A stretch of DNA of 64,000 nucleotides from DASRDR01 sp963812945 [NCBI: uncultured Candidatus Rokubacteria bacterium]. Lineage in GTDB: Bacteria > Methylomirabilota > Methylomirabilia > Rokubacteriales. The notes under the pieces are model-generated. The model saw only the letters and a list, made by a program, of their open reading frames with translations, ran no database searches and was not told the DNA's origin. Position numbers and translations under genes: made by a program. This document shows, in pieces, positions 9,250 to 30,991 of the stretch. Position 1 is the stretch's first letter. Every line of letters begins with the position of its first letter. Location: the NCBI GenBank assembly GCA_963812945.1, contig CAWEXD010000004.1, positions 186,001-250,000 of the forward strand, read 5' to 3'.

Positions 9250-10365
9250 CTACTGGTCGAGCGGGAGCTCGGGCACCGGCCATGCTGGGGGCGGCCCCGC
9301 CCCGCCCGTCACCCGCCGTCGCATCGCCGCGTCACACACTGCGTAGCCCCAATTGATGAGCCGGCCCTGCTCGGTGTCCGAGAAGTCGTCGAGCCGCGTC
9401 CGCATTCCGGCGAGCTCGTGGATACGGCCGGGAAGGACCGGCAGGGCGTCGGCCAGGCCGTACTTCTTGATCTCGGTGTCGATGCCCCAGTACACGCCCT
9501 TCCGCACGCCGCGCTCGTAGTCCTCGACCAGAGCCCGCTTGCGAAGCCCGCGGGACTGATTGGTCGCGACGTCGAGGGCCCGCAGCACCTGGCCGTGCCA
9601 CGAAGTCTCCGGATCGACCGCGAGCCCGAACGGCGCGCCGGCATCGCTCACCAGCACCGTGTCGTAGCGGTTCCACACGGTCTCGAGGCCGAGGTTGTCG
9701 TACGCTCCGCCGTCGGTCAGGAGGACCCGCTGGCGGTACTGGATCTGGTCGAAGAGATCGGCGCCCTCGACGCGCTCGAAGGCGCTCGGATCGGTCTCGA
9801 CCGGGACCGGCGAGAGGAAGGGCGGGAAGGCGCTCGAGGCGGTGACCGCGAGGGCGACCGGGAAGGCCGGCTTCCGGATGAGGCCGATCCGGTAGTCGCC
9901 GGCATACGGCTTCGAGAACCGGAAGCTCACCCCGGTGCCGAGGTTCGTCGCGTTGATCACGAAGCGCGGGCGATCGGGCAGCTCCTGGAGCGTGGCCGCG
10001 CCGTAGAGGTGCTCCGCGTAGGCCGCCTGCAAGATGCCGCTCGGCTGCCGCCCGGGGAGCAGCGTCCCCAGCCCGATCGCGGGCGCGTCGACTGTCCGGT
10101 GGCAGAACGCCCGGAGCGGCTCGACCATCAGCTCTCGGAAGTTCGCGGCGACATCGCCCTGGAACCGGAGCCCCGTCCAGCGGGTGGCGAGGACCCCGGC
10201 GGTGATCGAGCCGCCGGAGACGCTCGACACGCGGTCGAGCTTGGCGAGAACGCCGAGCTCGTTGAGCCGCCAGAGCGCGCCGCAGTGGAAGAGCGTCGCG
10301 CGGAAGCCTCCGCCCGAGAGTGCTAACCCGATGCCTGGATCGACACCCTCGCTCCCGAACGGCAT
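9250..10365 (-). CDS. Patatin-like phospholipase
   Basis: 371-aa patatin-domain acyl hydrolase. The oxyanion loop SGGGFR lies at residues 17-22, the nucleophile elbow SSVSGGS at 47-53 (Ser50 the likely nucleophile), and the partner Asp in LLTDGGAYDN further on. I chose the ATG at 10365, which puts the patatin fold at the very N-terminus as usual; the frame stays open 34 codons further upstream but that part looks non-coding. No signal peptide is visible. It probably hydrolyses membrane or storage lipids, matching the lipid/terpenoid-oxidation theme of the operon downstream. It is the first gene of a two-gene unit with the 278-aa protein. Confidence 0.88.
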   Translation of the reverse strand: MPFGSEGVDPGIGLALSGGGFRATLFHCGALWRLNELGVLAKLDRVSSVSGGSITAGVLATRWTGLRFQGDVAANFRELMVEPLRAFCHRTVDAPAIGLGTLLPGRQPSGILQAAYAEHLYGAATLQELPDRPRFVINATNLGTGVSFRFSKPYAGDYRIGLIRKPAFPVALAVTASSAFPPFLSPVPVETDPSAFERVEGADLFDQIQYRQRVLLTDGGAYDNLGLETVWNRYDTVLVSDAGAPFGLAVDPETSWHGQVLRALDVATNQSRGLRKRALVEDYERGVRKGVYWGIDTEIKKYGLADALPVLPGRIHELAGMRTRLDDFSDTEQGRLINWGYAVCDAAMRRRVTGGAGPPPAWPVPELPLDQ

Positions 10366-10982
10366 GACGTGAGTCCCCCGCGCAGCCCCGAGTAGAAACA
10401 ATGCGGGCGACACCTTTGCAGCAACGCGAGTGCCAGTGGCGCCTGGCGCCGCGAGCGCTGGTGCCACGCGGAGTTAGGGGCGCGCAGTGACGCGACCCCT
10501 GCACAGTCCACGTGGCAGGTCGCGGGAGAACCGCCGCTTCAGAGCTCGGAACGCCTTATCCCGCGGACCCTTAGCCGCCCTGCACTGTGGACTGTGCAGG
10601 GTGCCCTGTGGACTGTGCACATGGGCGGGCCGCGGGCGACGAGGATGCCACGGCCTTGGTCACGCTCGGAGGTGGTGGTGCACACCGGTGGTGCTGGCGT
10701 CACAGCGGGGACCCGGACGGGGACCGGCAGGGCCGGCCGCGCGGGGGACCGCGCCACCCCGCCCCACGATCATGGCCGACGTCGCGTGGGACGAAGTGGT
10801 GGGCCGAACCCGCTCGCGCGGGGCCACGTCCGCGCCAGCCCGACCATCGTCGACCGGCAGGAGTGCTACCGAGGTCAGGCTACCAGCGGCGGGGCCTCCG
10901 GGCCACGGAGGAAAGTCTTGGAGCCAGGGACCCAGTTTGGCATGCTCGAACTCAAGATGAGGTGCGCGTGCCTCGCTCGCTC
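10366..10982. other. Gene-poor gap with a structured repeat
   Basis: About 600 nt between the patatin gene and the small basic protein. It holds copy A of the TGCAC/GTGCA element (10500-10620). The rest shows only overlapping low-quality frames on both strands with no start site, domain or signal that I would support. The promoter of the patatin gene must lie at its left end, but no clear -35/-10 pair is visible. Confidence 0.6.
10500..10620. repeat. TGCAC-palindrome element, copy A
   Basis: Short unit beginning TGCACAGTCCACGTGG at 10500, then about 62 nt containing CGCCTTAT, then a 41-nt double unit at 10580-10620 made of TGCACTGTGGACTGTGCA, GGG and TGCCCTGTGGACTGTGCA. The double unit is the reverse complement of those in copies B (17174-17213) and C (30742-30781), at about 85% identity. 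The distance from short to double unit (80 nt) matches the other copies (83 and 84 nt). Confidence 0.75.
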
Positions 10983-11482: not shown

Positions 11483-12634
11483 CTACACCAGCTTGATCGG
11501 CACCGACAGCTGTCCCGGGTCGCGTGTCACCACCTTGTAGCTCCGGCCGGCCTTGCGCTCCGCGTCGAAGAACTTCTTGATCCTCTGCCCGATCTTGGCC
11601 ACCGCGAACTTGTCCAGCGGATAGGTCAAGTAGATCGTGAAGCCGTCGTCCGGCCGGGCGGCGGAGATCATCTCGAGCGTCTCCATGTCGGGGTTGTCGT
11701 GCTTGCCGTCCGCCGAGACGACGTAGTGCTTCGCGACGATCGTCTCGAAATAGCCCTTCTCGACGTTCCGGCTGCTGCCGTGGTGCGGCACCTTCAAGAC
11801 GTCGACGACCAGCTTGCCCTTCTTCAGGAGCTTGGCTGACTTCAACCCGTCGAGGGTATGGTCGCCACGGCCGTCGCCCGTGAGGAGAATGCGCTTGCCC
11901 TGCGATTCGACGAGCACCACGATGCTCGAGAGGTTGTGCACCGAGTCGTCGACGTAGGCCGCGATCTCGGCGAGTCGTCCCCGGCTGCGCTCTTTCTTCA
12001 GGAGCGGCGCGATCTCGGTATTCCACTTCTGCTGCAAGGCCGTCAGCTCCGTCTTGCGCGGGCCGACCACGGTCATCCTGAGGTCGCCGACCGTCACGAC
12101 CTTCGCGGGATTGGTGCCGAGCACGAGGCCCTTGAACGGGGCGTTTCCGCCGAGGCTCAGCGCGTCGAGCAGCTTGCGGAGGTCGCGTCCCTGCTTGACG
12201 CTCGCCAGGATGAGCGATCCCTCCGGCGCGAGGAACTCCTCGAGCGAGGCGGTGTTCATCGCCGAGCCGCTCCCGCCGACCTGGAGGTCGTCGTTGTCCA
12301 GGATGTCGTCGAACGAGTTGTGCCAGAAGCGACGGATCTTCCACGGCAGGGGCTGGCCCGACTCGCGCCGCTGGTTGAGCTTCCGGGCGAGCTCCAGGAG
12401 GCCGGCCACGTGGTCGTCGTCGATGTGGCTGACCATCATGAGCTCGACGTCGAGGGGCGTCCGGGCGTCCAGCCCGCGCTCGGCGCGGATCGCCTCCAGC
12501 CGCGGGCGCAGCGCGTCGTTGTAGACGCCGGGCGGCCCTCCGTCGATGACGGTCACCTGCGGGCTCTTCGCGGTGCCGGAGTGGAGGATGAGCGAGTCGC
12601 CGAACTTCGCGCGGAGCGCCTCGAGCACCAGCAT
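11483..12634 (-). CDS. Metallo-beta-lactamase-fold hydrolase, ComEC-like
   Basis: 383-aa cytoplasmic MBL-fold protein. The metal site SHIDDDHVAG (His70, Asp72, Asp74, His75) is the H-x-D-x-D-H variant used by ComEC C-terminal domains. It is followed by LLTGDG and VPHHGSSRN, which give further metal ligands. There is no signal peptide and no ComEC membrane domain. AGGAG lies 7 nt before the ATG. The subtilase gene ends 42 nt upstream on the same strand, so the two form an operon. The fold suggests a phosphodiesterase or nuclease-like hydrolase; the substrate is unknown. The pairing with a protease is the notable feature. Confidence 0.88.
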   Translation of the reverse strand: MLVLEALRAKFGDSLILHSGTAKSPQVTVIDGGPPGVYNDALRPRLEAIRAERGLDARTPLDVELMMVSHIDDDHVAGLLELARKLNQRRESGQPLPWKIRRFWHNSFDDILDNDDLQVGGSGSAMNTASLEEFLAPEGSLILASVKQGRDLRKLLDALSLGGNAPFKGLVLGTNPAKVVTVGDLRMTVVGPRKTELTALQQKWNTEIAPLLKKERSRGRLAEIAAYVDDSVHNLSSIVVLVESQGKRILLTGDGRGDHTLDGLKSAKLLKKGKLVVDVLKVPHHGSSRNVEKGYFETIVAKHYVVSADGKHDNPDMETLEMISAARPDDGFTIYLTYPLDKFAVAKIGQRIKKFFDAERKAGRSYKVVTRDPGQLSVPIKLV

Positions 12635-12676: not shown

Positions 12677-14701
12677 TCAGACCGACTGCAGGGCGCGCAG
12701 CACGTCCAGCATCCCGGCGCCCTGGAAGTAGCGCTCGCGGCCGAGGTCCGTCGCCGTCGAGCACAGGATCTGCTTGAGGCGCCCCGGCCGGCCGACCAGC
12801 TCGTTGTGCCGGGCCATCAGCAGCGCCGCGGCGCCGCTCACGTGGGGCGCGGCCATGCTCGTGCCGTCCTTGAGTCCGAAGCCGTTCTCCGGGACCGGCG
12901 CCGTGATCTTCTCGCCGGGCGCCACGAGATCCGGCTTGCTGCGTCCATCGCCGGTCGGCCCCCGGCTCGAGAAGTAGCTGACGCCGTAGGTGTGCGGCCG
13001 GTAGCGGTGCGTGGCCCCGACGGTGATGACCATCTCGGCGTTGCCCGGGTCGGTGACGCTGATGCTCAGGTACGCCTCGGCGACGCGGCCCTCCGCCGTC
13101 GTGTATCGCTGGCGCCCCTGGTTTCCGGCCGCCGCGACCACGACCACCCCCGAGGAGACCACGCGCTCGCACTCGTCACAGACGGGCGTGCGGCCGCACG
13201 CGTAGTTCGAGATCTCGTGAGGGATCGAGAGACTCAGGTTCGCGCCGTGCACGACGACGTACTCGTTGGTCGAGTTGAGGTAGCGCACGAACTGCAGCGC
13301 GGCCATGACGGCAAACTCGTCGCCCCGGCCGGTCTCGTCCAGCACGCGGAGGTCGTAGAGGCGGAGATCGGGGCAGACGCCGATCAGGTCCTCCTCGAGC
13401 CCCCCCTCGAATTCGTCCTTTCGCCAGTCGCCGGCCAGGATGCCGGCGACGTGCGTGCCGTGGTCGTTCCCGGGCCGCGCGTACTTCCCGTCATGGGGGA
13501 CTCGGATGAGGGGAGCGACGAGGCTCCAGTCGACCGCGCGGCCGCGGCTCAGAGCGCCGTTGAGCTCCTCGAGCTGCCGCCTGAGCTCCTCGGCCTCGGC
13601 GGAACTGACCTTGAGCCGCTTCGCCAGCGGCGCGGGCTGCTTGCTCGGATCCGGGTCCAGCAGGAGATCGATCTGCGTGAAGTCGTACGTCTCGACGATG
13701 CGGGTGTAGTTCTCGGCCTTCCCCCTCTTGGTGCCGAACGGCACCTTGCTCACCGGCTTCCCGTCCGGATCGCGCAGCCGGAAGGCCGAATGCCGGGCGT
13801 CGATGCCGCTGTCGATGACCGCCCACGCCAGGTCACGGCAGGAGATCTTGAAGAGGAGCCGGGCCGCGTCGGCCTTGATGGCCAGCGTCGATTGCGCGAT
13901 GGTCGGGGACGCCTCCCGGTTCAGGTTGACCGAGTACACCAGGGCGGACGTGTCCTGGTTCACGCCCCGGACCATCTCGGCCGCCGCGCGGACCAGCGGC
14001 AGCCAGTCGGCCGCCGTCGCCGCGGCGACGCCTTCCTTGGTGTCGGTGAACGCGCGGGGCAGCTGGCCGCCTGTTCGCACGATGGCCAGGGCGCCCACCA
14101 CCCGGATCAGCCACAGGAGATCCGGCGGCACCCGCCGCCGGCGCTTCTTGCTCTTCGGGCCGGGAGCGATCCCCGGATTCTCGGGATCCTTGATGGCCTG
14201 CGCCAGCCACCGCTGCGAGGCCTCGGACTGGATGTCCGAGACCTTCCAGTCCTTGGTGAGCCGTGCCCACCACCTGGTCATCGGCAGCACGACGCGGATC
14301 AGGTCCTCGAAGTGCAGCGTGGCAGCAACCGTGGACTGGTTGTAGGCGATGCGCGGCGGCGCCGGCTCGTGACCGAACGCGCGCCACGACGGTGTCCGGC
14401 GCTCGATGGGCAGGCGTTCCCGGATGAGGCGACACACCTCACCGGCCGCCACATCCCGGAACGGCGTGAGCAGGAGCTTCAGCGGAAGAAGCGGCGCGGT
14501 CGGCGGAGCCGGTCCGCGGGCACCCGGGGGGCGGCCCTCGGGCGGGGCCACCGGCTGCTTGGCATACTCCAGCCAGACGTCGGGAAGCACCGGCGAGTCC
14601 TGGGTGAACCTCCGGGCCCGCCCCGTCCCGAAGAGCAGCTGCTCCATCAGATCCCGGTCGAGCTTTTGCAGAGGCGTTGCCCGCGTGCGCTTGGTCGCCA
14701 T
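12677..14701 (-). CDS. Cytoplasmic subtilisin-like serine protease (S8) with a unique N-terminal domain
   Basis: 674-aa S8 peptidase. The triad is visible: Asp297 in AVIDSGID, His414 in NDHGTHVAG and Ser615 in KDGTSMAAPHVSG, with oxyanion Asn527 in AAAGNQG. There is no signal peptide, so it acts inside the cell. The first 285 residues form an uncharacterised domain. The distance from Asp to His (117 residues) is far longer than usual and contains an EAEELRRQLEEL helical insertion. A Cys pair with further Cys (CGRTPVCDEC, 502-511) could bind metal. It is cotranscribed with the MBL protein and divergent from the 387-aa gene. The catalytic machinery looks intact. Confidence 0.92.
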   Translation of the reverse strand: MATKRTRATPLQKLDRDLMEQLLFGTGRARRFTQDSPVLPDVWLEYAKQPVAPPEGRPPGARGPAPPTAPLLPLKLLLTPFRDVAAGEVCRLIRERLPIERRTPSWRAFGHEPAPPRIAYNQSTVAATLHFEDLIRVVLPMTRWWARLTKDWKVSDIQSEASQRWLAQAIKDPENPGIAPGPKSKKRRRRVPPDLLWLIRVVGALAIVRTGGQLPRAFTDTKEGVAAATAADWLPLVRAAAEMVRGVNQDTSALVYSVNLNREASPTIAQSTLAIKADAARLLFKISCRDLAWAVIDSGIDARHSAFRLRDPDGKPVSKVPFGTKRGKAENYTRIVETYDFTQIDLLLDPDPSKQPAPLAKRLKVSSAEAEELRRQLEELNGALSRGRAVDWSLVAPLIRVPHDGKYARPGNDHGTHVAGILAGDWRKDEFEGGLEEDLIGVCPDLRLYDLRVLDETGRGDEFAVMAALQFVRYLNSTNEYVVVHGANLSLSIPHEISNYACGRTPVCDECERVVSSGVVVVAAAGNQGRQRYTTAEGRVAEAYLSISVTDPGNAEMVITVGATHRYRPHTYGVSYFSSRGPTGDGRSKPDLVAPGEKITAPVPENGFGLKDGTSMAAPHVSGAAALLMARHNELVGRPGRLKQILCSTATDLGRERYFQGAGMLDVLRALQSV

Positions 14702-15979: not shown

Positions 15980-16909
15980 TCAGTCCTGGACGGCGTGGCC
16001 CATCTCGACGCGGCCCCGGACGGCGCGGAGCTGTTTCTCGGTATTGCTCCCCAGGGTCTTGCCGCACCGGCCCACCTCGTCGTTCTCCAGGATGAGCGCC
16101 GTCGTCTGCGGCGCGGCCATCATGACCGACTTGACGGTCTCGATGTAGTTCGACCAGAAGTCGCGCAGCTCCTTGCGCTGGTCGCTCAGGTGGGCATCGG
16201 GGTCGTGGCCATGGAAGGACCAGTTCCACCCGGCATAGGAGCGCGACATGGTCCACCAGAGGGCCGTGTCACGGCCCCGGAACCCGGCCTTGCGCATCCG
16301 GCGCGGAACCTCCTTCATGTCGGCGAGGACGAGCTTGGTCGGTCCTCCCCGGCAGTACCGTCCCAGCCAGGCCTTGAACGCCGGGTCGATCTGCGTGAGG
16401 GCGCCCGGAACCCAGACCTGGTGGTCCACGAGCACGTTCACCGTCGCGGCCTCGTGCGTGATCGGCGTCTCGTCCCCGGATGCGGGGTCCGGCGTCGTCC
16501 CGCCGGGAGTGGGCAGGGGTTCGACCACGGGCGGCACCCGTGGCTGGGGGGGCGCTGCGGCCGGCAGGGTTCTGATGGTCAGCGCTCGCGTCGCCGGTAT
16601 GGCGCCGCGCTTCGGAACGATCACCGTCACCTCGACCTGGTACTCCGTGTCGGGGGTGAGGGGCGCCAGGGTCCGCTGGTGGTCGCGCTGCCTGGCGGCG
16701 TCGACCACCTCCGTCCACGCTTCGGTCAAGGCCGTGCGGTAGCGCACCACGCCGCTCGATCGCCGATCCGTCTGCCACTCCACGCCCGCCACGTCGCGAG
16801 CGACTCCGAAGGGACGCGGGCCCACCGTGAACGTCGGGGGCGGCACCGGTTCGGGCGCGGCCCCCCCGGAGGACTCCAGCTCCTCGAGCAGATCTTCGAG
16901 CCAGCCCAT
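15980..16909 (-). CDS. Unknown protein with an Fn3-like domain
   Basis: 309-aa protein. The ATG at 16909 has GGAG 7 nt upstream; the longer frame reads into a repeat and is rejected. Residues 1-30 are acidic (MGWLEDLLEELESSGG). Residues about 35-110 look like a fibronectin type III fold (VEWQTDRRSSGVVRYR, then LTPDTEYQVEVTV). A Pro-rich linker leads to a C-terminal domain with many Trp residues (DTALWWTMSRSYAGWNWSF). There is no signal peptide or TM segment. It may be a binding or scaffold protein. It lies between the subtilase group and the kynurenine-type genes with no obvious operon partner. Confidence 0.75.
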   Translation of the reverse strand: MGWLEDLLEELESSGGAAPEPVPPPTFTVGPRPFGVARDVAGVEWQTDRRSSGVVRYRTALTEAWTEVVDAARQRDHQRTLAPLTPDTEYQVEVTVIVPKRGAIPATRALTIRTLPAAAPPQPRVPPVVEPLPTPGGTTPDPASGDETPITHEAATVNVLVDHQVWVPGALTQIDPAFKAWLGRYCRGGPTKLVLADMKEVPRRMRKAGFRGRDTALWWTMSRSYAGWNWSFHGHDPDAHLSDQRKELRDFWSNYIETVKSVMMAAPQTTALILENDEVGRCGKTLGSNTEKQLRAVRGRVEMGHAVQD

Positions 16910-17305
16910 TGTTAGTCTCCTCCCGATGCGGAGCTCGCGGGACCTGAGCGCACGTTCGCCTCCGTTGACGGTCGGATCGCGGCGGCGATGCTGGGGGGTG
17001 CATGGCCCGTGCCGGGCGTGAGCGCCCTGACAAACCCCATGGGCCATCGGCAGTTGTGCGTCATGGACCGACAGGGCGCCCGGCCGGCCCTTGCACAGCC
17101 CACTGTGCAGCCCCCGTGGGGCCCTCGGGGCCATGGACGGCGTGGCGCCTTATTATTCAGCGAGCTACAGGCACTGCACTGTCCACAGTGCACCCTGCAC
17201 AGTCTAGTGTGCAAGGGTGAGCCGCAGGAGCCCGCGCCGTCGGTCCCTGCGCCGATCGGCCGGTCCTCCGGCGATCGGCGGGCCGTGGACCGCTGGCCTC
17301 GACGC
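16910..17305. other. Gene-poor gap with a structured repeat
   Basis: About 400 nt between the Fn3-like gene start and the 3' end of the dioxygenase gene. It holds copy B of the TGCAC/GTGCA element (17091-17213), including a locally AT-rich CCTTATTATT. No credible gene was seen on either strand. Confidence 0.6.
17091..17213. repeat. TGCAC-palindrome element, copy B (best preserved)
   Basis: Short unit at 17091-17110 forms a perfect hairpin, TGCACAG-CCCA-CTGTGCA. About 63 nt later, 17174-17213 forms two hairpins separated by CCC: TGCACTGT-CC-ACAGTGCA (perfect 8-bp arms) and TGCACA-GTCTAG-TGTGCA (6-bp arms). The spacer carries GCGCCTTATTATT, also seen in part in copy A. Confidence 0.8.
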
Positions 17306-19624: not shown

Positions 19625-22600
19625 GTGAGCGATCCTCACCGCAACCTCGCCGATCCGAGCACCCCGACGGGGCGGGCCGGGCCAGGGCCCGAGCGACACC
19701 CGGAGCCCGACCACGGCGGGCGGCCGCTCGACCACCCGCAACCGCTCGATTCTCCGTCCCTCGAGCTCGATGACGAGCGGAAGATCGTGTCGATCCTGTT
19801 CGTCGACCTCGTGGGGTTCGTGGCGCGATCGGATCGGGCCGACCCCGAGGACGTGCGGGCCACCCTCAGGCCCTACTACACCTGTGTTCGGCGAGAGCTG
19901 GCGCGGTGGGGTGGCACCGTCGAGAAGTTCATCGGCGATGCCGTGATGGCCACGTTCGGCGCGCCCGTTGCTCACGAGGACGACGCCGAGCGGGCGGTAC
20001 GGGCTGGCCTCCGTGTCGTGCGCGCGGTCCAGGAGCTGAACGCGGCCGAGCCGGGACTCGGGCTGGCGCTCCGCGCGGCGGTCACGACGGGGGAAGCGGT
20101 CGTGGCGCGCGGAGCCCGGTCGACGCAAGGCGAGGGCATCGCGACGGGCGACGTGGTCAATACGGCGGCCCGCCTCCAGATGGTCGCCCCGGTCGATGCG
20201 GTGGTCGTCGACGAGGCGACCTACCGGACGACCCGGCACCTCGTCGACTACGAGGCCCTCCAATCCGTCCCGATCCAGGGAAAGGCCGGGCCGATCCGGG
20301 TGTGGCGGGCCAAGGCCGCGCGCAGCCGATATGGCGCCGACCCGGCCCAGACCACGCCGTCGCCGTTCATCGGGCGGAGCCACGAGCTGGCGCTCCTGAA
20401 GGCCATGTACGCGCGGGCCGTGCGCGAGGCGTCGGTGCAGCTCGTCACGGTGACCGGCGAGCCCGGGGTCGGGAAGAGTCGCCTGGTGCGGGAGTTCCGC
20501 GCCTTCGTCGACTGGCAGCCCGAGCGGACGCGCTGGCGGCAGGGCCGATGCCTGGCCTATGGGGAGGGCATCAGCTTCTGGGCGCTGGGAGAGATCGTCA
20601 AGAGTCAGGCGGGCATCCTCGAATCGGACAGCCCGGACGAGGCCTCCGGCAAGCTGGCGGCGGCGATCGCCGCGATCGTCGAGGATGCCGCCGAGCGAGA
20701 CTGGCTCCAGGCCCGCCTGGCGGTCCTCGTGGGCGCGAGCGCGCCCGGCGCCGGGGCCCCGGCCGAGCGGTCGGAATCGTTCGCCGCCTGGCGACGCTTC
20801 CTCGAGGCGGTCGCGGCCGACCGCCCGCTGGTCCTCGTCTTCGAGGACGTGCACTGGGCCGGCACCGAGCTGCTCGAGTTCGTCGAGCACCTCGTGGACT
20901 GGTCGGCCAGCCTGCCGTTCCTGGTCGTGTGCACGACGAGACCGGAGCTCTTCGAGCGCCGGCCGGGATGGGGCGGCGGGAAGCACGACTCCACCACCAT
21001 CTCGCTCGCCCCGCTCTCGCGCGAGGAGACGGCGCGCCTGATCGCCGCGCACCTCTCCGAGGTCGCCCTCCCGGCCGAGACCCAGAGCGCGCTCCTCGAG
21101 CGGGCCGGCGGCAACCCGCTCTACGCCGAGGAGTTCGCTCGCATGCTCACCGACCGCGGGATGCTCGAGCGCCGGGGACAGACCATGCAGCTGGCGGTCG
21201 GCGCCGACATCCCGGTCCCCGAGACCATTCAGGCGGTGATCGCCGCGCGGCTCGACACGCTGCCGGCCGACCGGAAGGCGCTCCTTCACGACGCGGCCGT
21301 CGTGGGCAAGTCCTTCTGGGTGGGCGCGCTCGCTTACATGAGCGGGCTCGACGAGCGCAAGGTGGAGCAAGGCCTCCGCACGATCGCCAAGAAGGAGCTC
21401 CTGCGTCCCGTCCGGAACTCGTCGGTCAACGGCCAGGCCGAGTACTCGTTCGGGCACCTGCTCATCCGGGACGTCGCCTACCAGCAGATTCCGCGCGCGG
21501 CGCGGGTGCGGAAGCACCGGGCGGCCGCCGCCTGGATCGAGCGCCTGCCCGGGGCCCGGGTGGCCGACCACGCGGAGATCCTGGCGCACCACTACGGGCA
21601 GGCGCTCAGGCTCGCGAGGGCCGCCGGCCTGTCCGACGACACCGGTGAGCTGGAGACTCAGGCCCGGCGCTTTCTGACCATGGCCGGAGAGCGCGCGCTC
21701 GAGTTCGACGCCCGGAAGGGAGAGGCCTTCTACCGGCAGGCGCTCGAGCTCTGTCCGCCGGGCCATCCCGACCGGGCCAGGCTGCTAGGGAAGGCGGCCC
21801 TGGCGGCCGTCGTCGCCGGCCACCTGTCCGAGGCACAGCACGACTTCGAGGAGGCGATCGCCGAGTTCCGCGCCCGGGGAGAGGCTCGCGGCGCGGGCGA
21901 GGCGATGGTGGAGCTGGCGGGGACGTACTGGTTCCGAGGCGAGACCGACCGGAAGCGGGCGCTCCTGGCGCAGGCGATCGAGGTGCTCGAGCGCGAGCCG
22001 CCCGGACGCGAGCTCGCCCTGGCCTACACGCACACCGCCGCCGACCACATGGTCGCGAACCGCTCCCAGGAGTGCGCGCGGTGGTCGGAAAAGGCCCTGT
22101 CGCTCGCCCAGGGGCTCGGGCTGGAGGCGGAGAGCATCCGGGCGCGTCAGCTCCGGGGGCTCGCGCGCTGCCAGCTCAGCGACGTGGCCGACGGCCTGGC
22201 GGACCTGCGGGAAGCGCTTCGCCAGAGCCTCGAGCTCGGGCTGGGGAACGAGACGACCCGATCCTACGGGAACCTCGGCGATTGGGTCTGGTACGCCGAG
22301 GGCCCGGCACGGAGCCTGGAGGTCAAGCGAGCGGGGATCGAGTTCGGGGAGCGGCACGGACTCACCCTGCCCGTCGTGTGGGCCAAGGCCGAGACGATCT
22401 GGCCTCTGTTCGACCTCGGGCAGTGGGACGAGCTCTCGCGCCTCGCCGCGGAGCTGATCGAGTGGGACCGGCTGCAGGGTGGTGGCCAGATCACCGTCGT
22501 CGCCCTCACGTACACGGCGTACGTGCTCGCGTGTCGCGGAGAGATCGACCAGGCCCAGACCCTCGCGGAGGCGTTTCTGCCGCGCGCCCGGGAGATCCGG

Positions 22601-23122
22601 GACCCACAGGTGCTCGTCCCGGCGGTGGCGGTCGTCTCGCTCATCGAGCACGCGCGCGGCAACCATTCCACCGCCGTCCGGCTGATCGAGGAGAGCGAGG
22701 AGATCACGCGGAACAGGCCCGTGTTCCGGGCCCGCCACCTGCCCGAGGCCCTCCGCGTGTGCGTGGCGGCGGACGCGATCCCCCTGGCCGAACGCCTGCT
22801 GGAGTCGAGCGGGCACACCGCCGCCCGCCACCGGCACTCCGTGCTGGCGGGGCGCGCCGTGCTGGCGGAGGCGCGGGGCAAGCGGGAGGAGGCGAGCGCC
22901 CTCCATGCCGAGGCGGCCGAGCGGTGGGCGGACTACGGGTTCGCGCTGGAGCGCGGACAGGCGGCCCTGGGGGCGGGCCGCTGCCTCGTCGCCCTGGGCC
23001 GGCACGACGAGGCGGTGGCCCGACTGGACGAGGCTCGGGGAGTCTTCGCCGCGCTCCGGGCGGCGCCGCTCTCCGGCGAGGCTGACCGGCTCCTGGCGCG
23101 CGCGCGGGGCCAGATCTCCTGA
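19625..23122 (+). CDS. Class III nucleotide cyclase fused to AAA-type NTPase and TPR domains
   Basis: 1165-aa regulator. Residues 52-230 are a class III cyclase/GGDEF-fold catalytic domain with both metal Asp residues (Asp61 in FVDLVGF, Asp105 in KFIGDAVMA) and the catalytic Asn179/Arg183 in VVNTAARL, so it looks active. A STAND-like AAA_16 ATPase follows: Walker A GEPGVGKS (278-285) and Walker B LVLVFEDVHW. The C-terminal half is a helical TPR-type array. It uses a GTG start with no strong ribosome site. The second copy of the architecture starts 7 nt after its stop codon. It probably senses a ligand through the TPR array and makes cAMP or cGMP. Confidence 0.93.
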   Translation: MSDPHRNLADPSTPTGRAGPGPERHPEPDHGGRPLDHPQPLDSPSLELDDERKIVSILFVDLVGFVARSDRADPEDVRATLRPYYTCVRRELARWGGTVEKFIGDAVMATFGAPVAHEDDAERAVRAGLRVVRAVQELNAAEPGLGLALRAAVTTGEAVVARGARSTQGEGIATGDVVNTAARLQMVAPVDAVVVDEATYRTTRHLVDYEALQSVPIQGKAGPIRVWRAKAARSRYGADPAQTTPSPFIGRSHELALLKAMYARAVREASVQLVTVTGEPGVGKSRLVREFRAFVDWQPERTRWRQGRCLAYGEGISFWALGEIVKSQAGILESDSPDEASGKLAAAIAAIVEDAAERDWLQARLAVLVGASAPGAGAPAERSESFAAWRRFLEAVAADRPLVLVFEDVHWAGTELLEFVEHLVDWSASLPFLVVCTTRPELFERRPGWGGGKHDSTTISLAPLSREETARLIAAHLSEVALPAETQSALLERAGGNPLYAEEFARMLTDRGMLERRGQTMQLAVGADIPVPETIQAVIAARLDTLPADRKALLHDAAVVGKSFWVGALAYMSGLDERKVEQGLRTIAKKELLRPVRNSSVNGQAEYSFGHLLIRDVAYQQIPRAARVRKHRAAAAWIERLPGARVADHAEILAHHYGQALRLARAAGLSDDTGELETQARRFLTMAGERALEFDARKGEAFYRQALELCPPGHPDRARLLGKAALAAVVAGHLSEAQHDFEEAIAEFRARGEARGAGEAMVELAGTYWFRGETDRKRALLAQAIEVLEREPPGRELALAYTHTAADHMVANRSQECARWSEKALSLAQGLGLEAESIRARQLRGLARCQLSDVADGLADLREALRQSLELGLGNETTRSYGNLGDWVWYAEGPARSLEVKRAGIEFGERHGLTLPVVWAKAETIWPLFDLGQWDELSRLAAELIEWDRLQGGGQITVVALTYTAYVLACRGEIDQAQTLAEAFLPRAREIRDPQVLVPAVAVVSLIEHARGNHSTAVRLIEESEEITRNRPVFRARHLPEALRVCVAADAIPLAERLLESSGHTAARHRHSVLAGRAVLAEARGKREEASALHAEAAERWADYGFALERGQAALGAGRCLVALGRHDEAVARLDEARGVFAALRAAPLSGEADRLLARARGQIS

Positions 23123-23128
23123 TCTGAC

Positions 23129-26100
23129 ATGGCCGAAGAGCGCCGCATCGTCACCGTGCTGTTTGCCGACATGACCGGCTCCACCGCGCTCGTCGAGGCC
23201 CGCGATCCCGAGGACGTGCGGGCGCTCCTGGCGCGGTACTACGGGATCGCGAGGGAGGTGGTCAGCGCCCACGGCGGCACGCTGGAGAAGTTCATCGGCG
23301 ACGCCGTCATGGCCGTCTTCGGGCTCCCCCAGGCGCACGGTGACGACGCGCAGCGCGCGATGTCGGCGGCGCTGGACATCCGCGACCGCGTCCGCGGGGA
23401 CCCGAAGCTCGGACCCCACCAGGCGGTGCGAATCGGCGTCAACACGGGGGAAGTCGTCGCCACGCGGGACAGCGCGGCCAGCGACTTCCTGATCACGGGC
23501 GACGCCGTCAACGTGGCGGCGCGGCTCCAGCAGACGGCCGAGCCGTGGACCATCATGTGCGGGGAGCGAACCGCGCGGGCCGCCCGGGAGCGGTTCGTCC
23601 TGGGGCACGCCATCGAGGTCGAGGTCAAGGGCAAGCAGCAGCCGGTCCAGGCGTCGCCCCTTCTCGGCCGGGCGGCCGAGGCCGTCCCGCTGTCCCGATT
23701 CCCGCTCGTCGGCCGGGACGACGACCTGGCGCAGCTCCAGCTGGTTTCTCGGCGCGCGTTCAGCGATCGGCGGCCGTTTCTCGTGAGCCTGATCGCGCCG
23801 GCGGGGGCCGGCAAGACCCGCCTGGTGGAGGAGTTCCTGCAGCGGCTGCCCCTGCTCTCACCCGACGCGACGGTGGCGATCGCGCAGTGTCTTCCCTACG
23901 GCCAGCGGGTCACCTACTGGCCGCTCCGCGCCCTGCTGGTCCGCCTCGTCGGCCTGAAGGACGAGGCCGCGCCGGACACCGTGCGCGAGGAGATCCGGGC
24001 CTGGCTCCACGATCGGGGGGTCGAGTCGTCCGAGCGTGTGGCAGACCTGCTCGCCGCGACCATCGGCGCGGGCGAGCCGGAGGTGATCGATCGGCCGGCC
24101 CTCTTCGCGGCCTGGCGCACGGCCATCGAAGTGGCGGGGCGTCGGGCGCCGCTGGTCCTGGTGTTCGAGGACCTGCACTGGTCCAGCGACAGCCTCCTCG
24201 ATCTCGTCGAGTTCATGATGCAGCCCCGGGGCGATGCGGCCGTGCTCATGATCGCCCTCACCCGCCCGGAGCTGCTCGACCGGCGCCCGGGGTGGGGTGG
24301 CGGCCAGCGGAATTACGTCGCCATGTCGCTCGAGCCCCTCAGCGACGACTCCGTCGCGCAGCTGGTCCGCCATGTGGTCGGGGCCACGGCCCCGCAGATC
24401 GTCGAGCGGGTCGTGGCCCGCGCCGAGGGCAACCCCTTCTTCGCGGGGGAAATCGTCCAGTCGATCCGAGAGCGCGTCCACTCGCTGAGCGATGGGGCCG
24501 CCGTCGAGCATGCGCTCGCGACGCTGCCGGACACGATCCAGGCCACCATTCTCGCCCGGCTCGACCTCCTGGAGCCCGCGGAGCGCCGCATCCTGCAGCT
24601 CGGCGCGGTGTTCGGGCGAGCGTTCCGCACGGGCGAGATCGCCGCCCTCGGTCCGGATCTGGCGGCCGAGGTCGACGCGCGGGTGGATCGGCTCGTCCAG
24701 AAGGACCTCATCCGGCCCTCGGCGGGCGACAGCTTCGTCTTCCGTCACATCCTGATCCGGGAGGTGGCGTACCAGACGCTGCTTCGCGCCGAGCGGGCGG
24801 AGCTGCACGCGGCGGCCGCCCGCCGCCTCGAGGGACGGGCCGGCGGGCGCGAGGACGCGCTCGCCGAGCTGATCGCCTATCACTTTCGCGAGGCGGCCAC
24901 CCTCACGAGCGCGACCAGGCCGGCGCCCGCCCACACGGACGAGATCCGGCGAAAGGCCGTGAGCTGGCTCAAGCGCGCGGCCGACGTCGCGGCGGCCGGC
25001 GCGGCGACCGCCGAGGCCGCCCGGCACCTGCGCGCGGCCATCGAGCTGGCGCCCGCCGGCGATCTTCCGGAGCTCCAGGAGCGCCTCGGCGACGTCTCGG
25101 GGGGAGACGGCGGGGCGGAGGCGTACCGGGTCGCGCTTCGGCTCTGCCGGGAGCTGGGCCGGCCGGCGGATCAGGAGCTCCGCATCCTGGGCAGCCTCCT
25201 CATCCGGTACATGCGGTTCCAGGGAACGGTGGGAAATCGGCCGTCCACGGACGAGCTCCAGCAGCTCCGCGCGGACGGCCGCGCGCTCCTCGCCGCGGCC
25301 CGAGACGAGCGGGCCATCGCGAGCTTTCTCGTCGCGGATGGCTTCTATCCGTTCTGGCTCGGGGCCCAGACGACGGCAGAGGACATCGCCGAAGCCGAGG
25401 CGAGCACCGGGCGTGGCCTCGCGATCGCCGACCGGCTCGACGATCCCCGCCTCAGGAGCGCCGCCCTCGACGCGCTCACGTGCTGCGCCCAGGCGCGAGG
25501 GGCGTGGGCGCAGGCCCGGCGGTTCTCGGTCGAGCGTCTCGCCTTCGAGGACCGCCTCGACCTCCACGAGCGCCTGGACGCGTACACGATGGTGGCGTGG
25601 GCCTCGGCCCTCCTGGGCGACCTCGCCCAGGCCGACCGCGCGACCGCCTCGGCGCTCGGCCTGTTCCAGTCGGGCCAGGTTCACTGGTGGGGGCTCCACT
25701 CCGCCTCCTGGCGGGCGTACACGCTGACGCTTCTCGGCCGCTGGGACGACGCGCTCCGCGTGGCCGAGCACGCCCGGAAGATCTGGGCCGAAGGCGGTCT
25801 GATCCCGGCCGCGTACTGCGTGCATGGCTTCATCGCCGCCCTGGACGTCGCGCGAGCGCGCCGCGACGGTCGGCTGGTCGACCAGTACCGGACCGTGCTC
25901 GACGAGATCCTGAAACACTTCGCCGGGGACTCTCTCTTCGGGCGGCTGCGTCCCTACGCGCGTGGGGACGTCGACACGCTCGAGCAGGAGGTCGTTCGCG
26001 GCTTCGGCACGATTCCGCGCGCGCGCCAGCAGCTCGTCGAGCGCGCGCTCTCTCTGTGCGCCGATCTCGGGCGCGCCCGCGCCCCCGACACGCTCCGGCC

Positions 26101-26386
26101 GATCGCGGAGTCGGCGGCGGCTGACGGTCTCAAGCTTCTCGAGGCTCAGGCGCGGCGAGCGCTCGGCATCGCGGGGCGAGACGTCGCCGAGCTGACGCGC
26201 GCCCTCGCGATCTTCGAGGAGGCTCGCGCGGCGCCGTACGCCGCGAGGGTCCGCTGTGAGCGGGCCCTCGTCACCGGCGACGAGGGCGAGCTCGAGGCCG
26301 GCCTGCGCGCCCTGGAGGCGCTGGGCGACCTCGATCAGCTGGCCCGGATGGAGCGCGCGCGCGGCGGCGAGCACCGCGCGCCGTAG
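23129..26386 (+). CDS. Class III nucleotide cyclase fused to AAA-type NTPase and TPR domains (second copy)
   Basis: 1085-aa paralogue of the preceding gene with the same domain order. Cyclase: Asp14 in LFADMTGST, Asp58 in KFIGDAVMAVFG, Asn128/Arg132 in AVNVAARL. ATPase: Walker A APAGAGKT (223-230) and Walker B LVLVFEDLHW. A TPR-like helical region follows. It lacks the Pro-rich N-terminal extension of the first copy. The 7-nt gap implies translational coupling, so the two proteins may form heterodimers; class III cyclases work as dimers. The sequences have diverged well beyond a recent duplication. Confidence 0.93.
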   Translation: MAEERRIVTVLFADMTGSTALVEARDPEDVRALLARYYGIAREVVSAHGGTLEKFIGDAVMAVFGLPQAHGDDAQRAMSAALDIRDRVRGDPKLGPHQAVRIGVNTGEVVATRDSAASDFLITGDAVNVAARLQQTAEPWTIMCGERTARAARERFVLGHAIEVEVKGKQQPVQASPLLGRAAEAVPLSRFPLVGRDDDLAQLQLVSRRAFSDRRPFLVSLIAPAGAGKTRLVEEFLQRLPLLSPDATVAIAQCLPYGQRVTYWPLRALLVRLVGLKDEAAPDTVREEIRAWLHDRGVESSERVADLLAATIGAGEPEVIDRPALFAAWRTAIEVAGRRAPLVLVFEDLHWSSDSLLDLVEFMMQPRGDAAVLMIALTRPELLDRRPGWGGGQRNYVAMSLEPLSDDSVAQLVRHVVGATAPQIVERVVARAEGNPFFAGEIVQSIRERVHSLSDGAAVEHALATLPDTIQATILARLDLLEPAERRILQLGAVFGRAFRTGEIAALGPDLAAEVDARVDRLVQKDLIRPSAGDSFVFRHILIREVAYQTLLRAERAELHAAAARRLEGRAGGREDALAELIAYHFREAATLTSATRPAPAHTDEIRRKAVSWLKRAADVAAAGAATAEAARHLRAAIELAPAGDLPELQERLGDVSGGDGGAEAYRVALRLCRELGRPADQELRILGSLLIRYMRFQGTVGNRPSTDELQQLRADGRALLAAARDERAIASFLVADGFYPFWLGAQTTAEDIAEAEASTGRGLAIADRLDDPRLRSAALDALTCCAQARGAWAQARRFSVERLAFEDRLDLHERLDAYTMVAWASALLGDLAQADRATASALGLFQSGQVHWWGLHSASWRAYTLTLLGRWDDALRVAEHARKIWAEGGLIPAAYCVHGFIAALDVARARRDGRLVDQYRTVLDEILKHFAGDSLFGRLRPYARGDVDTLEQEVVRGFGTIPRARQQLVERALSLCADLGRARAPDTLRPIAESAAADGLKLLEAQARRALGIAGRDVAELTRALAIFEEARAAPYAARVRCERALVTGDEGELEAGLRALEALGDLDQLARMERARGGEHRAP

Positions 26387-29511: not shown

Positions 29512-30339
29512 CTAGCTCACCTCGAGATCGATGAAGGCCCGGACCTCGTCCTGCTCGATGGCCGGGTTGTTGGGAACCTGTGGCGACACCGGCACCGGCT
29601 TCGGCTGCACGTCGATCGTCACGCCGTCGGTGAGCTCGAGCGCCATCTTCTCGAGCAGGATGCGCAGCTGCGGCAGGAACCCGAGCCGGAGGGTCGTGTC
29701 GATGACGCACTCCAGGCCGCTCTCGAGGTCGGGCGGCTGGATGTCCGAGATCTCGATGCGATCGACGAACGGCTCCAGGAAGAAGTGCTGGAAGTACTCC
29801 TTGAACCGGAGCCCGCCCACCAGGAAGGCGTCGAGGCAGACGCAGATGAGCTGCTGATCCGGCGGCAGGACCACCGGGTCGGGCGGCGGGGGCGGCGGAG
29901 GCGGCGCGTTGGGGTCCGGGTTGGGCGGGGGCGGGATGCTGTCGGCCACGGCCTGGGCGGGCGGGCACCCGATGCCCGCGCAGACGCGGAGGCTGATCGC
30001 GAGCCTCTGCGCGCCCAGCGGCGCCAGCTCCGGCGGCAGCGCGACCTCGTCCGGCGGATGGAAGTCGATCCGGACGTCCACGAGCTGGACCGAGAAGTTC
30101 AGCGCGAAGTGGGTGCCCGGAATCGGCAGGGGGTCGACGATCGTGACCAGTGGGTTGCCGTGGGCGTTCAGGCGCGGGTGCGCCACGATGGGCCGGCACA
30201 GGAGGGCCGGGTTGTCGTGGATGGCCTGGGTAGCGTAGTTGAACATCGACGGCCGCTGGAACCGGATGTGTCCGAGGATCGCGTTGAAGCCATCCTCGTG
30301 AAAGGCCCCGAACACGTCACAGTGATCAGTAAGCGCCAT
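29512..30339 (-). CDS. Unknown protein with a polyproline linker, first gene of a three-gene cassette
   Basis: 275-aa protein. The start is strong: GGGAGG lies 6 nt before the ATG. An N-terminal domain (GHIRFQRPSMFNYATQAIH, FALNFSVQLVDVRIDFHPP) is joined to a C-terminal domain through a long proline-rich linker, roughly residues 135-157, with eight consecutive Pro. The C-terminal part has strand patterns similar to the next gene (RIEISDIQPPD, LTDGVTIDVQPKP). The next gene begins 2 nt after its stop. It has no signal peptide. The function is unknown. Confidence 0.78.
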   Translation of the reverse strand: MALTDHCDVFGAFHEDGFNAILGHIRFQRPSMFNYATQAIHDNPALLCRPIVAHPRLNAHGNPLVTIVDPLPIPGTHFALNFSVQLVDVRIDFHPPDEVALPPELAPLGAQRLAISLRVCAGIGCPPAQAVADSIPPPPNPDPNAPPPPPPPPDPVVLPPDQQLICVCLDAFLVGGLRFKEYFQHFFLEPFVDRIEISDIQPPDLESGLECVIDTTLRLGFLPQLRILLEKMALELTDGVTIDVQPKPVPVSPQVPNNPAIEQDEVRAFIDLEVS

Positions 30340-30393: not shown

Positions 30394-30576
30394 CTACTCC
30401 CCCGCCTCGATCCGACCCCGCGCCGTGAGCCGGGTCACGACCTCCGTGGTGTAGCGCGCCGCCGAGCACGGTTCGCCGCCCGGATCGGGGTCGACGATGA
30501 GGGCGCGTGTCACGACCGGACGGTCCTCGGGGAAATGACGCCAGCAATGTCCGAGCCATTCGAACAGCAGCCGGGG
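30394..30576 (-). pseudogene. Fragment resembling the C-terminus of a lost protein
   Basis: A 60-codon open frame without a plausible start, ending at TAG. The amino-acid composition is protein-like (RPVVTRALIVDPDPGGEP, RYTTEVVTRLTARGRIEAGE) and unlike the other frames here. The upstream part is cut by an in-frame TAA, and the structured repeat copy C begins about 80 nt away. It may be the tail of a gene that once headed the three-gene cassette. No family was recognised. Confidence 0.35.
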
Positions 30577-30991
30577 TTACCTGCTCGAAGTACTGACGGG
30601 ATGGAACGAATCGGACGCGTGGCCTCCAAGAATGCCGGGAGATCGGATCGGTCGAGGTTGCACTGTCAGGTGTGCAGACCGCTCGACGATCGACGGGGAA
30701 TCGCTTCGATCAGGCGCGCAACATCAAGTGCTTACACGACACTGCACTGTGGACTGGGCACCCTGCACTGTCCAGTGTGCATCCCCACGCGGTGGGGAGA
30801 AATCCCACGCGGTGCCCGGCGGATCGAAGAGCTCGGTGGCCTCGAGGTCCCGGAGGCGTCGCCGGCCCTGACGCGCCAGCTCCCGGACGAACGCGGCCGG
30901 GATCCGGTGGAGCCTTACGCCGGCGGTGCCGTCAGCAACGACGACGGCGTCTCGGTCACGCTGGCGAGCGTCTCCTCACTCGGCGACCGGC
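30577..30991. other. Gene-poor gap with a structured repeat
   Basis: About 415 nt between the fragment and the binding-protein gene. It holds copy C of the TGCAC/GTGCA element. No supported gene was seen. Confidence 0.55.
30658..30781. repeat. TGCAC-palindrome element, copy C
   Basis: Short unit TTGCACTGTCAGGTGTGCAG at 30658-30677. After 64 nt comes the double unit at 30742-30781: TGCACTGTGGACTGGGCA, CCC, TGCACTGTCCAGTGTGCA. The double unit has 6 differences in 40 from copy B. Spacing from short to double unit is 84 nt. Confidence 0.75.

What the first reader, a model, noticed from the sequence alone, without database searches (positions are those of the whole stretch)
17091..17213. Structured element of about 125 bp present three times in gene-poor gaps
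Copies at 10500-10620, 17091-17213 and 30658-30781 share the same plan: a short unit of about 20 nt with TGCAC/GTGCA arms, a spacer of about 60 nt, then a 40-nt double unit of two such palindromes separated by CCC (GGG in copy A, whose double unit is inverted). Short-to-double distances are 80, 83 and 84 nt. Copies B and C differ at 6 of 40 positions in the double unit, yet palindromy is kept, notably in B with perfect 8-bp arms. All three lie in gaps of about 400-600 nt next to genes of unknown function. It could be a REP/BIME-like mobile repeat, a structured RNA or a protein-binding array.
Basis: seen in the sequence. Interest (0 to 1): 0.75.

Follow-up and report, generated by a model that had tools for sequence, protein, structure and literature searches.

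The report
Sigma-54 gene-switch docking sites
The three look-alike elements are most likely landing pads for an activator protein that switches on three nearby genes through the sigma-54 form of bacterial RNA polymerase, rather than mobile repeats or RNAs, and relatives carry the same kind of pads beside a conserved, so far undescribed mini-protein gene.

Summary
The three elements are real and far beyond chance. Each holds three 18-bp dyads (TGCAC-N8-GTGCA): a tandem pair at 21-bp pitch and a single one 81-84 nt away. They are best read as enhancers (UAS) of sigma-54 promoters, not REP/BIME repeats or structured RNA. Each has a -24/-12 promoter on the minus strand, on its single-dyad side; these are the only three minus-strand sites in 64 kb scoring >=0.88. 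They face a patatin-like phospholipase (A), a weakly Fn3-like protein (B) and an orphan protein (C). In Methylomirabilota, 44 of 95 genomes hold a locus running: NtrC-family regulator (bEBP), promoter region, ~43-aa micropeptide, OppA-like binding protein. Of 45 such loci, 40 have the promoter, 31 have TGCAC dyads with N7 or N8 spacers, 43 have the bEBP upstream, and 9 have the pair-plus-single layout. The kind is known (NtrC-type enhancers; E. coli's NtrC box is 17 bp). The 18-bp form, this regulon and the micropeptide locus were not found described in the few searches made. The window's own bEBP is not in the window, orthologues of gene A lack the element, and nothing was tested at the bench.

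The parts
10602..10619 (-). Element A, distal dyad of the tandem pair (TGCACAGTCCACAGGGCA on the minus strand)
   Evidence: pattern match
10581..10598 (-). Element A, second dyad of the tandem pair (TGCACAGTCCACAGTGCA)
   Evidence: pattern match
10500..10517 (-). Element A, single dyad, degenerate (TGCCACGTGGACTGTGCA)
   Evidence: 3 mismatches to the pattern
10420..10435 (-). Promoter A, -24/-12 sigma-54 type (TGGCACTCGCGTTGCT)
   Evidence: score 0.98; weights set by hand
9250..10365 (-). Gene A, patatin-like phospholipase, 371 aa
   Evidence: PF01734 E 1e-20; start read
17196..17213 (-). Element B, distal dyad of the tandem pair (TGCACACTAGACTGTGCA)
17175..17192 (-). Element B, second dyad of the tandem pair, perfect 8-bp arms (TGCACTGTGGACAGTGCA)
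17092..17109 (-). Element B, single dyad (TGCACAGTGGGCTGTGCA)
16999..17014 (-). Promoter B, -24/-12 sigma-54 type, the weakest of the three (CGGCACGGGCCATGCA)
   Evidence: score 0.89
15980..16909 (-). Gene B, 309 aa, weak Fn3-like stretch, RBS-like GGGAGGAG before the ATG
   Evidence: (scanned as 15980-16912; fn3 16.8 bits, below the cut-off of 25)
30764..30781 (-). Element C, distal dyad of the tandem pair (TGCACACTGGACAGTGCA)
30743..30760 (-). Element C, second dyad of the tandem pair (TGCCCAGTCCACAGTGCA)
30659..30676 (-). Element C, single dyad (TGCACACCTGACAGTGCA)
30543..30558 (-). Promoter C, -24/-12 sigma-54 type (TGGCTCGGACATTGCT)
   Evidence: score 0.93
29512..30339 (-). Gene C, 275 aa, no family found
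   Evidence: no homologue in 95 Methylomirabilota genomes

Best explanation
Each element is the upstream activating sequence (enhancer) of a sigma-54 promoter. Dimers of one bacterial enhancer-binding protein (bEBP), most likely a NtrC-family response regulator with a Fis-type HTH, bind the three 18-bp dyads. The tandem pair (21-bp pitch, about two helical turns) and the single dyad about 80 nt nearer the promoter would together hold three dimers, enough for one hexameric ring. When the receiver domain is phosphorylated the AAA+ ring forms, reaches sigma-54 RNA polymerase at the -24/-12 site through a DNA loop, and opens the promoter of gene A, B or C. Shown here by sequence: the dyads, their geometry, the promoters and their orientation, and the same arrangement next to a bEBP gene in relatives. 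Inferred: binding, phosphorylation, looping, which bEBP acts in this organism, and what the three genes are for.
For: The only three minus-strand -24/-12 sites in 64 kb with score >=0.88 lie at the three elements, all on the single-dyad side; a random position has such a site in the matching place with frequency 0.006. The 0.88 cut was set after B's score (0.89) was known. Dyad plus N60-90 plus TGGC-N7-TTGC: 23 matches in 21 of 95 Methylomirabilota genomes against 2 for the pattern read backwards. The bEBP-micropeptide-SBP locus: 44 of 95 genomes; of 45 loci, 40 have a -24/-12 site at -150 to -50 against 3 on the reverse strand, 43 have a bEBP within 700 nt upstream, 31 have TGCAC dyads with N7 or N8 spacers. 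Spacers N7 and N8 stand out: 17 and 16 loci against 0.5 and 0.9 expected. Pair-plus-single layout in 9 of 45 against 0.0 in shuffles. The spacer type goes with the bEBP recognition helix.
Against: The window holds no bEBP (tblastn of five relatives' bEBPs: no hit at 1e-3) and its genome is not held. Two orthologues of gene A (68% and 61%) have no -24/-12 site >=0.88 and only three-mismatch dyads. Genes B and C had no homologue to footprint. One search's search for paired dyads was hardly above its own control: 16 against 13 forward matches (12 against 8 genomes). 14 of 45 loci lack TGCAC dyads and 5 of 45 a promoter >=0.8. Seven of the 45 loci were first reached through N8 dyads, which favours N8 counts. 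Promoter B is weak; the promoter weights are mine.
Confidence: 0.92

Rival explanations
1. Operators of an ordinary dimeric regulator (TetR, LacI or GntR type) with looping between the pair and the single site, acting on sigma-70 promoters.
For: 18-bp dyads in phased pairs are also typical of such repressors (recalled); the dyads alone do not tell the protein.
Against: A -24/-12 site beside each of three copies and the bEBP gene directly upstream in 43 of 45 related loci would be a coincidence.
Confidence: 0.05
2. REP/BIME-like mobile repeat spread by a REP-associated transposase.
For: Palindromic units, pairs with a short fixed spacer, intergenic places, three copies in 64 kb.
Against: Every copy is oriented to a promoter and gene. 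In ten genomes with exact pairs there are 1-4 matches per genome counting both strands, not tens to hundreds. No transposase domain in the 41 ORFs scanned. The spacers between the parts are not alike among copies.
Confidence: 0.01
3. A structured RNA or attenuator.
For: The palindromes could form hairpins; the covariation score 0.126 is reached by 2 of 500 shuffles.
Against: The element lies upstream of the predicted promoter, outside the predicted transcript. Outer arm letters are fixed and pair 4:15 is broken in 7 of 23 units without compensation. No Rfam family.
Confidence: 0.01

Closest known systems
NtrC box and NtrC enhancers of enteric bacteria
   Same: Half-site TGCAC/GTGCA, tandem dyads upstream of a sigma-54 promoter; consensus TGCACCAnnnTGGTGCA (PMC8743547, passage; table row in PMC4987338). 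The N7 dyads of related loci (for example TGCACCAGTTTGGTGCA) equal this box.
   Different: Window dyads are 18 bp (N8) with WGT...ACW beside the core, in a pair-plus-single layout, and before genes not known for nitrogen control. The relative's bEBP tested scores below every NCBIfam equivalog cut-off shown, NtrC among them (25 of 125 families shown).
NorR enhancer (three sites) of E. coli norVW
   Same: Three dimer sites upstream of a sigma-54 promoter serve as scaffold for a hexamer (passages of PMC2941729, citing Tucker 2010, which is not held).
   Different: NorR is a GAF-domain sensor (same passages); the likely regulator here has a receiver domain.
PrsR / PEP-CTERM promoter region
   Same: Activator motif, spacer averaging 63 nt, then a sigma-54 site, before genes with long non-coding leaders (PMC1569441, passages).
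   Different: Its motif 1 is 17 nt and ends in TTTACA; the genes here were not seen to carry a PEP-CTERM signal (no such match).

Membership tests
sigma-54 promoter with bEBP enhancer (UAS) | -24/-12 site downstream of the dyads in the right orientation | tested here: met
   3 of 3 elements; B weaker than A and C
sigma-54 promoter with bEBP enhancer (UAS) | repeated dyads at phased spacing upstream of the promoter | tested here: met
   21-bp pitch in 3 of 3; double centre 165-204 nt from the -24 site
sigma-54 promoter with bEBP enhancer (UAS) | a cognate bEBP binds and is required | not testable with these tools
   indirect only: bEBP upstream in 43 of 45 related loci; none in the window
NtrC box (strict) | 17-bp dyad TGCAC-N7-GTGCA | tested here: not met
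   the nine window units are N8; N7 occurs in related promoters
NtrC box (strict) | regulator is NtrC | tested here: inconclusive
   the bEBP of L087 is below the NtrC cut-offs (443 of 558.6 and 362.5 of 620 bits); the window's own is unknown
REP/BIME | many copies per genome, linked to a TnpA-REP transposase | tested here: inconclusive
   own genome not held; no transposase in 41 ORFs scanned; 1-4 exact pair matches per genome in ten other genomes
structured RNA | stem kept by compensatory change along its length | tested here: not met
   outer pairs fixed, 4:15 broken in 7 of 23; inner pairs show some both-side changes, as a protein dyad would
structured RNA | is transcribed | not tested
   no expression data

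The most novel reading that the evidence does not exclude
The bEBP that reads such dyads runs a peptide-signalling circuit of Methylomirabilota: it turns on a secreted or membrane micropeptide (about 43 aa, ..APVIESGTS.STQ.FQAIGTADGGG) and the oligopeptide-type binding protein beside it, so the cell makes and then takes up or senses its own peptide. In the window's organism the same enhancer, with its pair-plus-single layout, stands before a patatin-like phospholipase and two genes of narrow distribution, adding them to the circuit.
Probability: 0.2. Interest if true: 0.75.

Novelty: new variant of a known kind. Interest (0 to 1): 0.5.

Why it matters
It turns three puzzling repeats into a testable regulon in an uncultivated lineage and names the operator and the likely regulator family. 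Orthologous promoters carry 17-bp dyads in some genomes and 18-bp dyads in others, together with a change in the recognition helix, which is a natural series for asking how an enhancer-binding protein and its site change together. It also brings out a widespread micropeptide gene that no Pfam or NCBIfam model matched.

Tried and rejected
Rfam on the window at gathering scores: nothing. tRNA/tmRNA scan: nothing. Homologues of genes B and C for footprinting: 0 of 95 genomes each (the tool warns that an empty answer without a positive control shows little). Orthologues of gene A: 2 of 95, without the element. PDB sequence search for protein C: best E 0.06, chance. PADLOC: no family for A, B or C; neighbours 11483-12634 and 12677-14701 match LmuA-like and subtilase models, not followed. 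Micropeptide model against the window: no hit; in 297 genomes of the phylum of G003 (a Desulfobacteraceae MAG): 1 weak match, E 0.006; in the phylum of G002 only one genome was held, no match. Reading the relatives' bEBP as NtrC itself was rejected on cut-offs. Paired dyads in 95 genomes were hardly above the reversed control (16 against 13 forward matches); what convinced me was synteny, not that count. Of its 12 genomes I set aside G043 and G044 (tandem or low-complexity) and G045 (unclear). Of the 67 stretches many are simple tandem repeats; after setting these aside by eye, 27 loci have 3-4 nt between dyads, 22 of them titled Desulfobacterota or Deltaproteobacteria. No structure was predicted.

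Full report
What is there. The window holds three copies of one plan. Each has three 18-bp dyads of consensus TGCACWGTSSACWGTGCA: two in tandem at 21-bp pitch and one 81 (A), 83 (B) or 84 (C) nt away, start to start. The search pattern gives 20 matches, both strands and overlaps counted, against 0.22 in shuffles.

What lies beside it. I scored -24/-12 sites with hand-set weights on TGGCACGNNNNTTGCW (the textbook consensus, recalled; PMC4641369 gives tGGcacg and tTGCt for Desulfovibrio, passage). One such site lies on the minus strand beside each copy, always on the side of the single dyad: TGGCACTCGCGTTGCT at 10435, CGGCACGGGCCATGCA at 17014, TGGCTCGGACATTGCT at 30558. In the whole window three minus-strand and two plus-strand sites reach 0.88; the three minus-strand ones are these. 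A random position has such a site in the matching place on a given side with frequency 0.006. The 0.88 cut was chosen after seeing B at 0.89. Each promoter faces a gene: a patatin-like phospholipase (9250-10365; PF01734), a 309-aa protein with a sub-threshold Fn3 match (15980-16909) and an orphan of 275 aa (29512-30339).

Relatives. A scan of genome contigs for paired dyads 0-10 nt apart returned 67 stretches. Setting aside simple tandem repeats by eye, 27 loci have 3-4 nt between dyads; 22 are titled Desulfobacterota or Deltaproteobacteria, and one each Methylomirabilota (L015) and Tectomicrobia (L033). Of 25 plus-strand places examined, 8 have a sigma-54 site scoring >=0.9 within 400 nt. L015 opened the way to 95 genomes of its phylum. 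The window seems to belong near them: its MoCoBD protein is up to 70% identical there and its patatin 68% and 61%. No other phylum was searched with these proteins, so the placement is likely, not proven.

The conserved locus. Paired dyads with a 3-nt gap and up to two mismatches occur in 12 of 95 genomes (16 forward matches), but the reversed control pattern gives 13 forward matches in 8 genomes; the count alone proves nothing. The context does: in G099, G100, G102, G092 and G082 the pair begins 2-7 nt after the stop codon of a bEBP gene (in G082 the stop lies within the first dyad), and in L015 18 nt after it. The bEBP of L087 has Response_reg, Sigma54_activat and HTH_8 domains. Then come a sigma-54 site, a micropeptide of about 43 aa and an SBP_bac_5 gene. 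A model made from five such peptides finds the peptide in 44 of 95 genomes, 40 of them at E <= 6e-14 and four (G001, G012, G014, G016) at 5e-7 to 0.004. I examined all 45 matches as loci L093-L136 and L015. A -24/-12 site >=0.8 lies at -150 to -50 in 40 of 45, against 3 of 45 on the reverse strand and 1 of the 44 loci with enough sequence at -400 to -300. A bEBP ends within 700 nt upstream in 43 of 45, and an SBP-like gene starts within 700 nt downstream in 42 of 45; in the other three the sequence held stops 122-270 nt after the peptide start.

The operator. In these promoters, dyads TGCAC-Nn-GTGCA with at most one mismatch occur in 17 of 45 loci for n = 7 and 16 of 45 for n = 8, against 0.5 and 0.9 in shuffles; n = 5, 6, 9 and 10 give 0, 3, 1 and 2. 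Seven n = 8 loci (L015, L093, L094, L096-L099) lie in genomes first met through n = 8 dyads, so that count is biased upward; n = 7 was never searched for. Together 31 of 45 loci have either type. The n = 7 dyads include the exact E. coli NtrC box (PMC8743547, passage). The type goes with the neighbouring bEBP's recognition helix: HRNT in 8 of 12 n = 8 loci and 0 of 13 n = 7 loci, HRNS in 2 of 12 and 12 of 13 (the helix was read by a fixed motif in 29 of 45 loci; kinship inflates the contrast). Under one rule (pair at 19-22 nt, at most three mismatches in the two; single with at most two, 75-95 nt on), 9 of 45 loci have the pair-plus-single layout, against 0.0 in shuffles: L015, L093, L096, L123 and L135 (n = 8), L102, L115, L117 and L118 (n = 7); L102's single overlaps its promoter and is probably chance. 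The window's three promoters have the same layout at 81-84 nt.

Mechanism. Shown: sequence, geometry, orientation, synteny. Inferred from established knowledge of bEBPs: each dyad binds a dimer through the Fis-type HTH; three dimers can supply a hexamer, as described for NorR with its three enhancer sites (PMC2941729, passages); phosphorylation of the receiver domain allows ring formation; DNA looping brings the ring to sigma-54 polymerase. Which bEBP acts in the window's organism is unknown: its genome is not held, and five relatives' bEBPs find nothing in the window.

Other readings. RNA: at pair 4:15 seven of 23 units are broken without compensation and two pairs never vary. The excess of both-side changes (3 of 500 shuffles as high) lies in inner pairs, as for a symmetric protein site. 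REP: no transposase domain in 41 scanned ORFs, 1-4 exact pair matches per genome in ten genomes, and promoter-linked placement.

Against my reading. Orthologues of gene A (L076, L077) lack the element. B and C cannot be footprinted. 14 of 45 loci lack TGCAC dyads; 5 of 45 lack a promoter at 0.8. Promoter B is weak. The window has no micropeptide, and several genomes with the closest MoCoBD match (G066-G070, G079, G098) had neither the micropeptide nor paired dyads, so the link between the window's regulon and that locus is by operator likeness and layout.

In print? Searches of the PMC library showed, in the rows listed, no description of this operator in Methylomirabilota or Rokubacteria; listings were capped (20, 20 and 8 rows) and one search was crowded with eukaryotic papers. 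One search, for small proteins in Rokubacteria, listed 8 of 211 papers, none on this by title. The Desulfovibrio regulome paper has no TGCAC or GTGCA in its main text (find). Supplements and subscription journals were not searched.

Noticed in passing
L093-L136 and L015 (for example L093, L097, L123): A micropeptide of about 43 aa with a hydrophobic N-terminal half and a conserved tail (IESGTS.STQ.FQAIGTADGGG) between a NtrC-family regulator and an OppA-like gene, found in 44 of 95 Methylomirabilota genomes; no Pfam or NCBIfam match for two members.
   Followed up: partly
L139, L143-L145, L147, L148, L150, L151, L154, L155, L158: A second sigma-54 promoter type with one or two TGCAC dyads (32 nt apart in some) before a small protein with a Fis-like HTH (..GNRTHAARALGLQRTYLLRLIR..) and, in many, a thiolase-like gene (names by eye).
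   Followed up: no
L146, L152, L159: Paired TGCAC-type dyads 33 nt apart and a sigma-54 site before a receiver-domain gene followed by a second gene with an HD-GYP-like stretch (domain names by eye).
   Followed up: no
L083, L084, L091: Paired dyads about 70 nt upstream of a gene with a YD/RHS-like stretch (YDDLGRLVRVIREDG), without a good sigma-54 site downstream in L083 and L091.
   Followed up: no
L013, L038, L041, L045, L060, L029, L050: In Desulfobacterota, pairs of AT-cored dyads (TGCACAnTTTTnTGTGCA) 3-4 nt apart with strong sigma-54 sites; a regulon seemingly not described in the main text of the Desulfovibrio paper.
   Followed up: partly
window 11483-12634 and 12677-14701: Metallo-beta-lactamase-fold protein matching the LmuA model (E 8e-52) and a subtilase matching a defence-library model (E 3e-42), next to the patatin-like gene: possibly a defence-like neighbourhood.
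   Followed up: no
window 19625-26386: Two adjacent large genes, each with a class III cyclase domain followed by an AAA_16 domain.
   Followed up: no
window 30394-30513, minus strand: A 39-aa ORF in the long leader between promoter C and gene C (MTRALIVDPDPGGEP...); not like the micropeptide.
   Followed up: no
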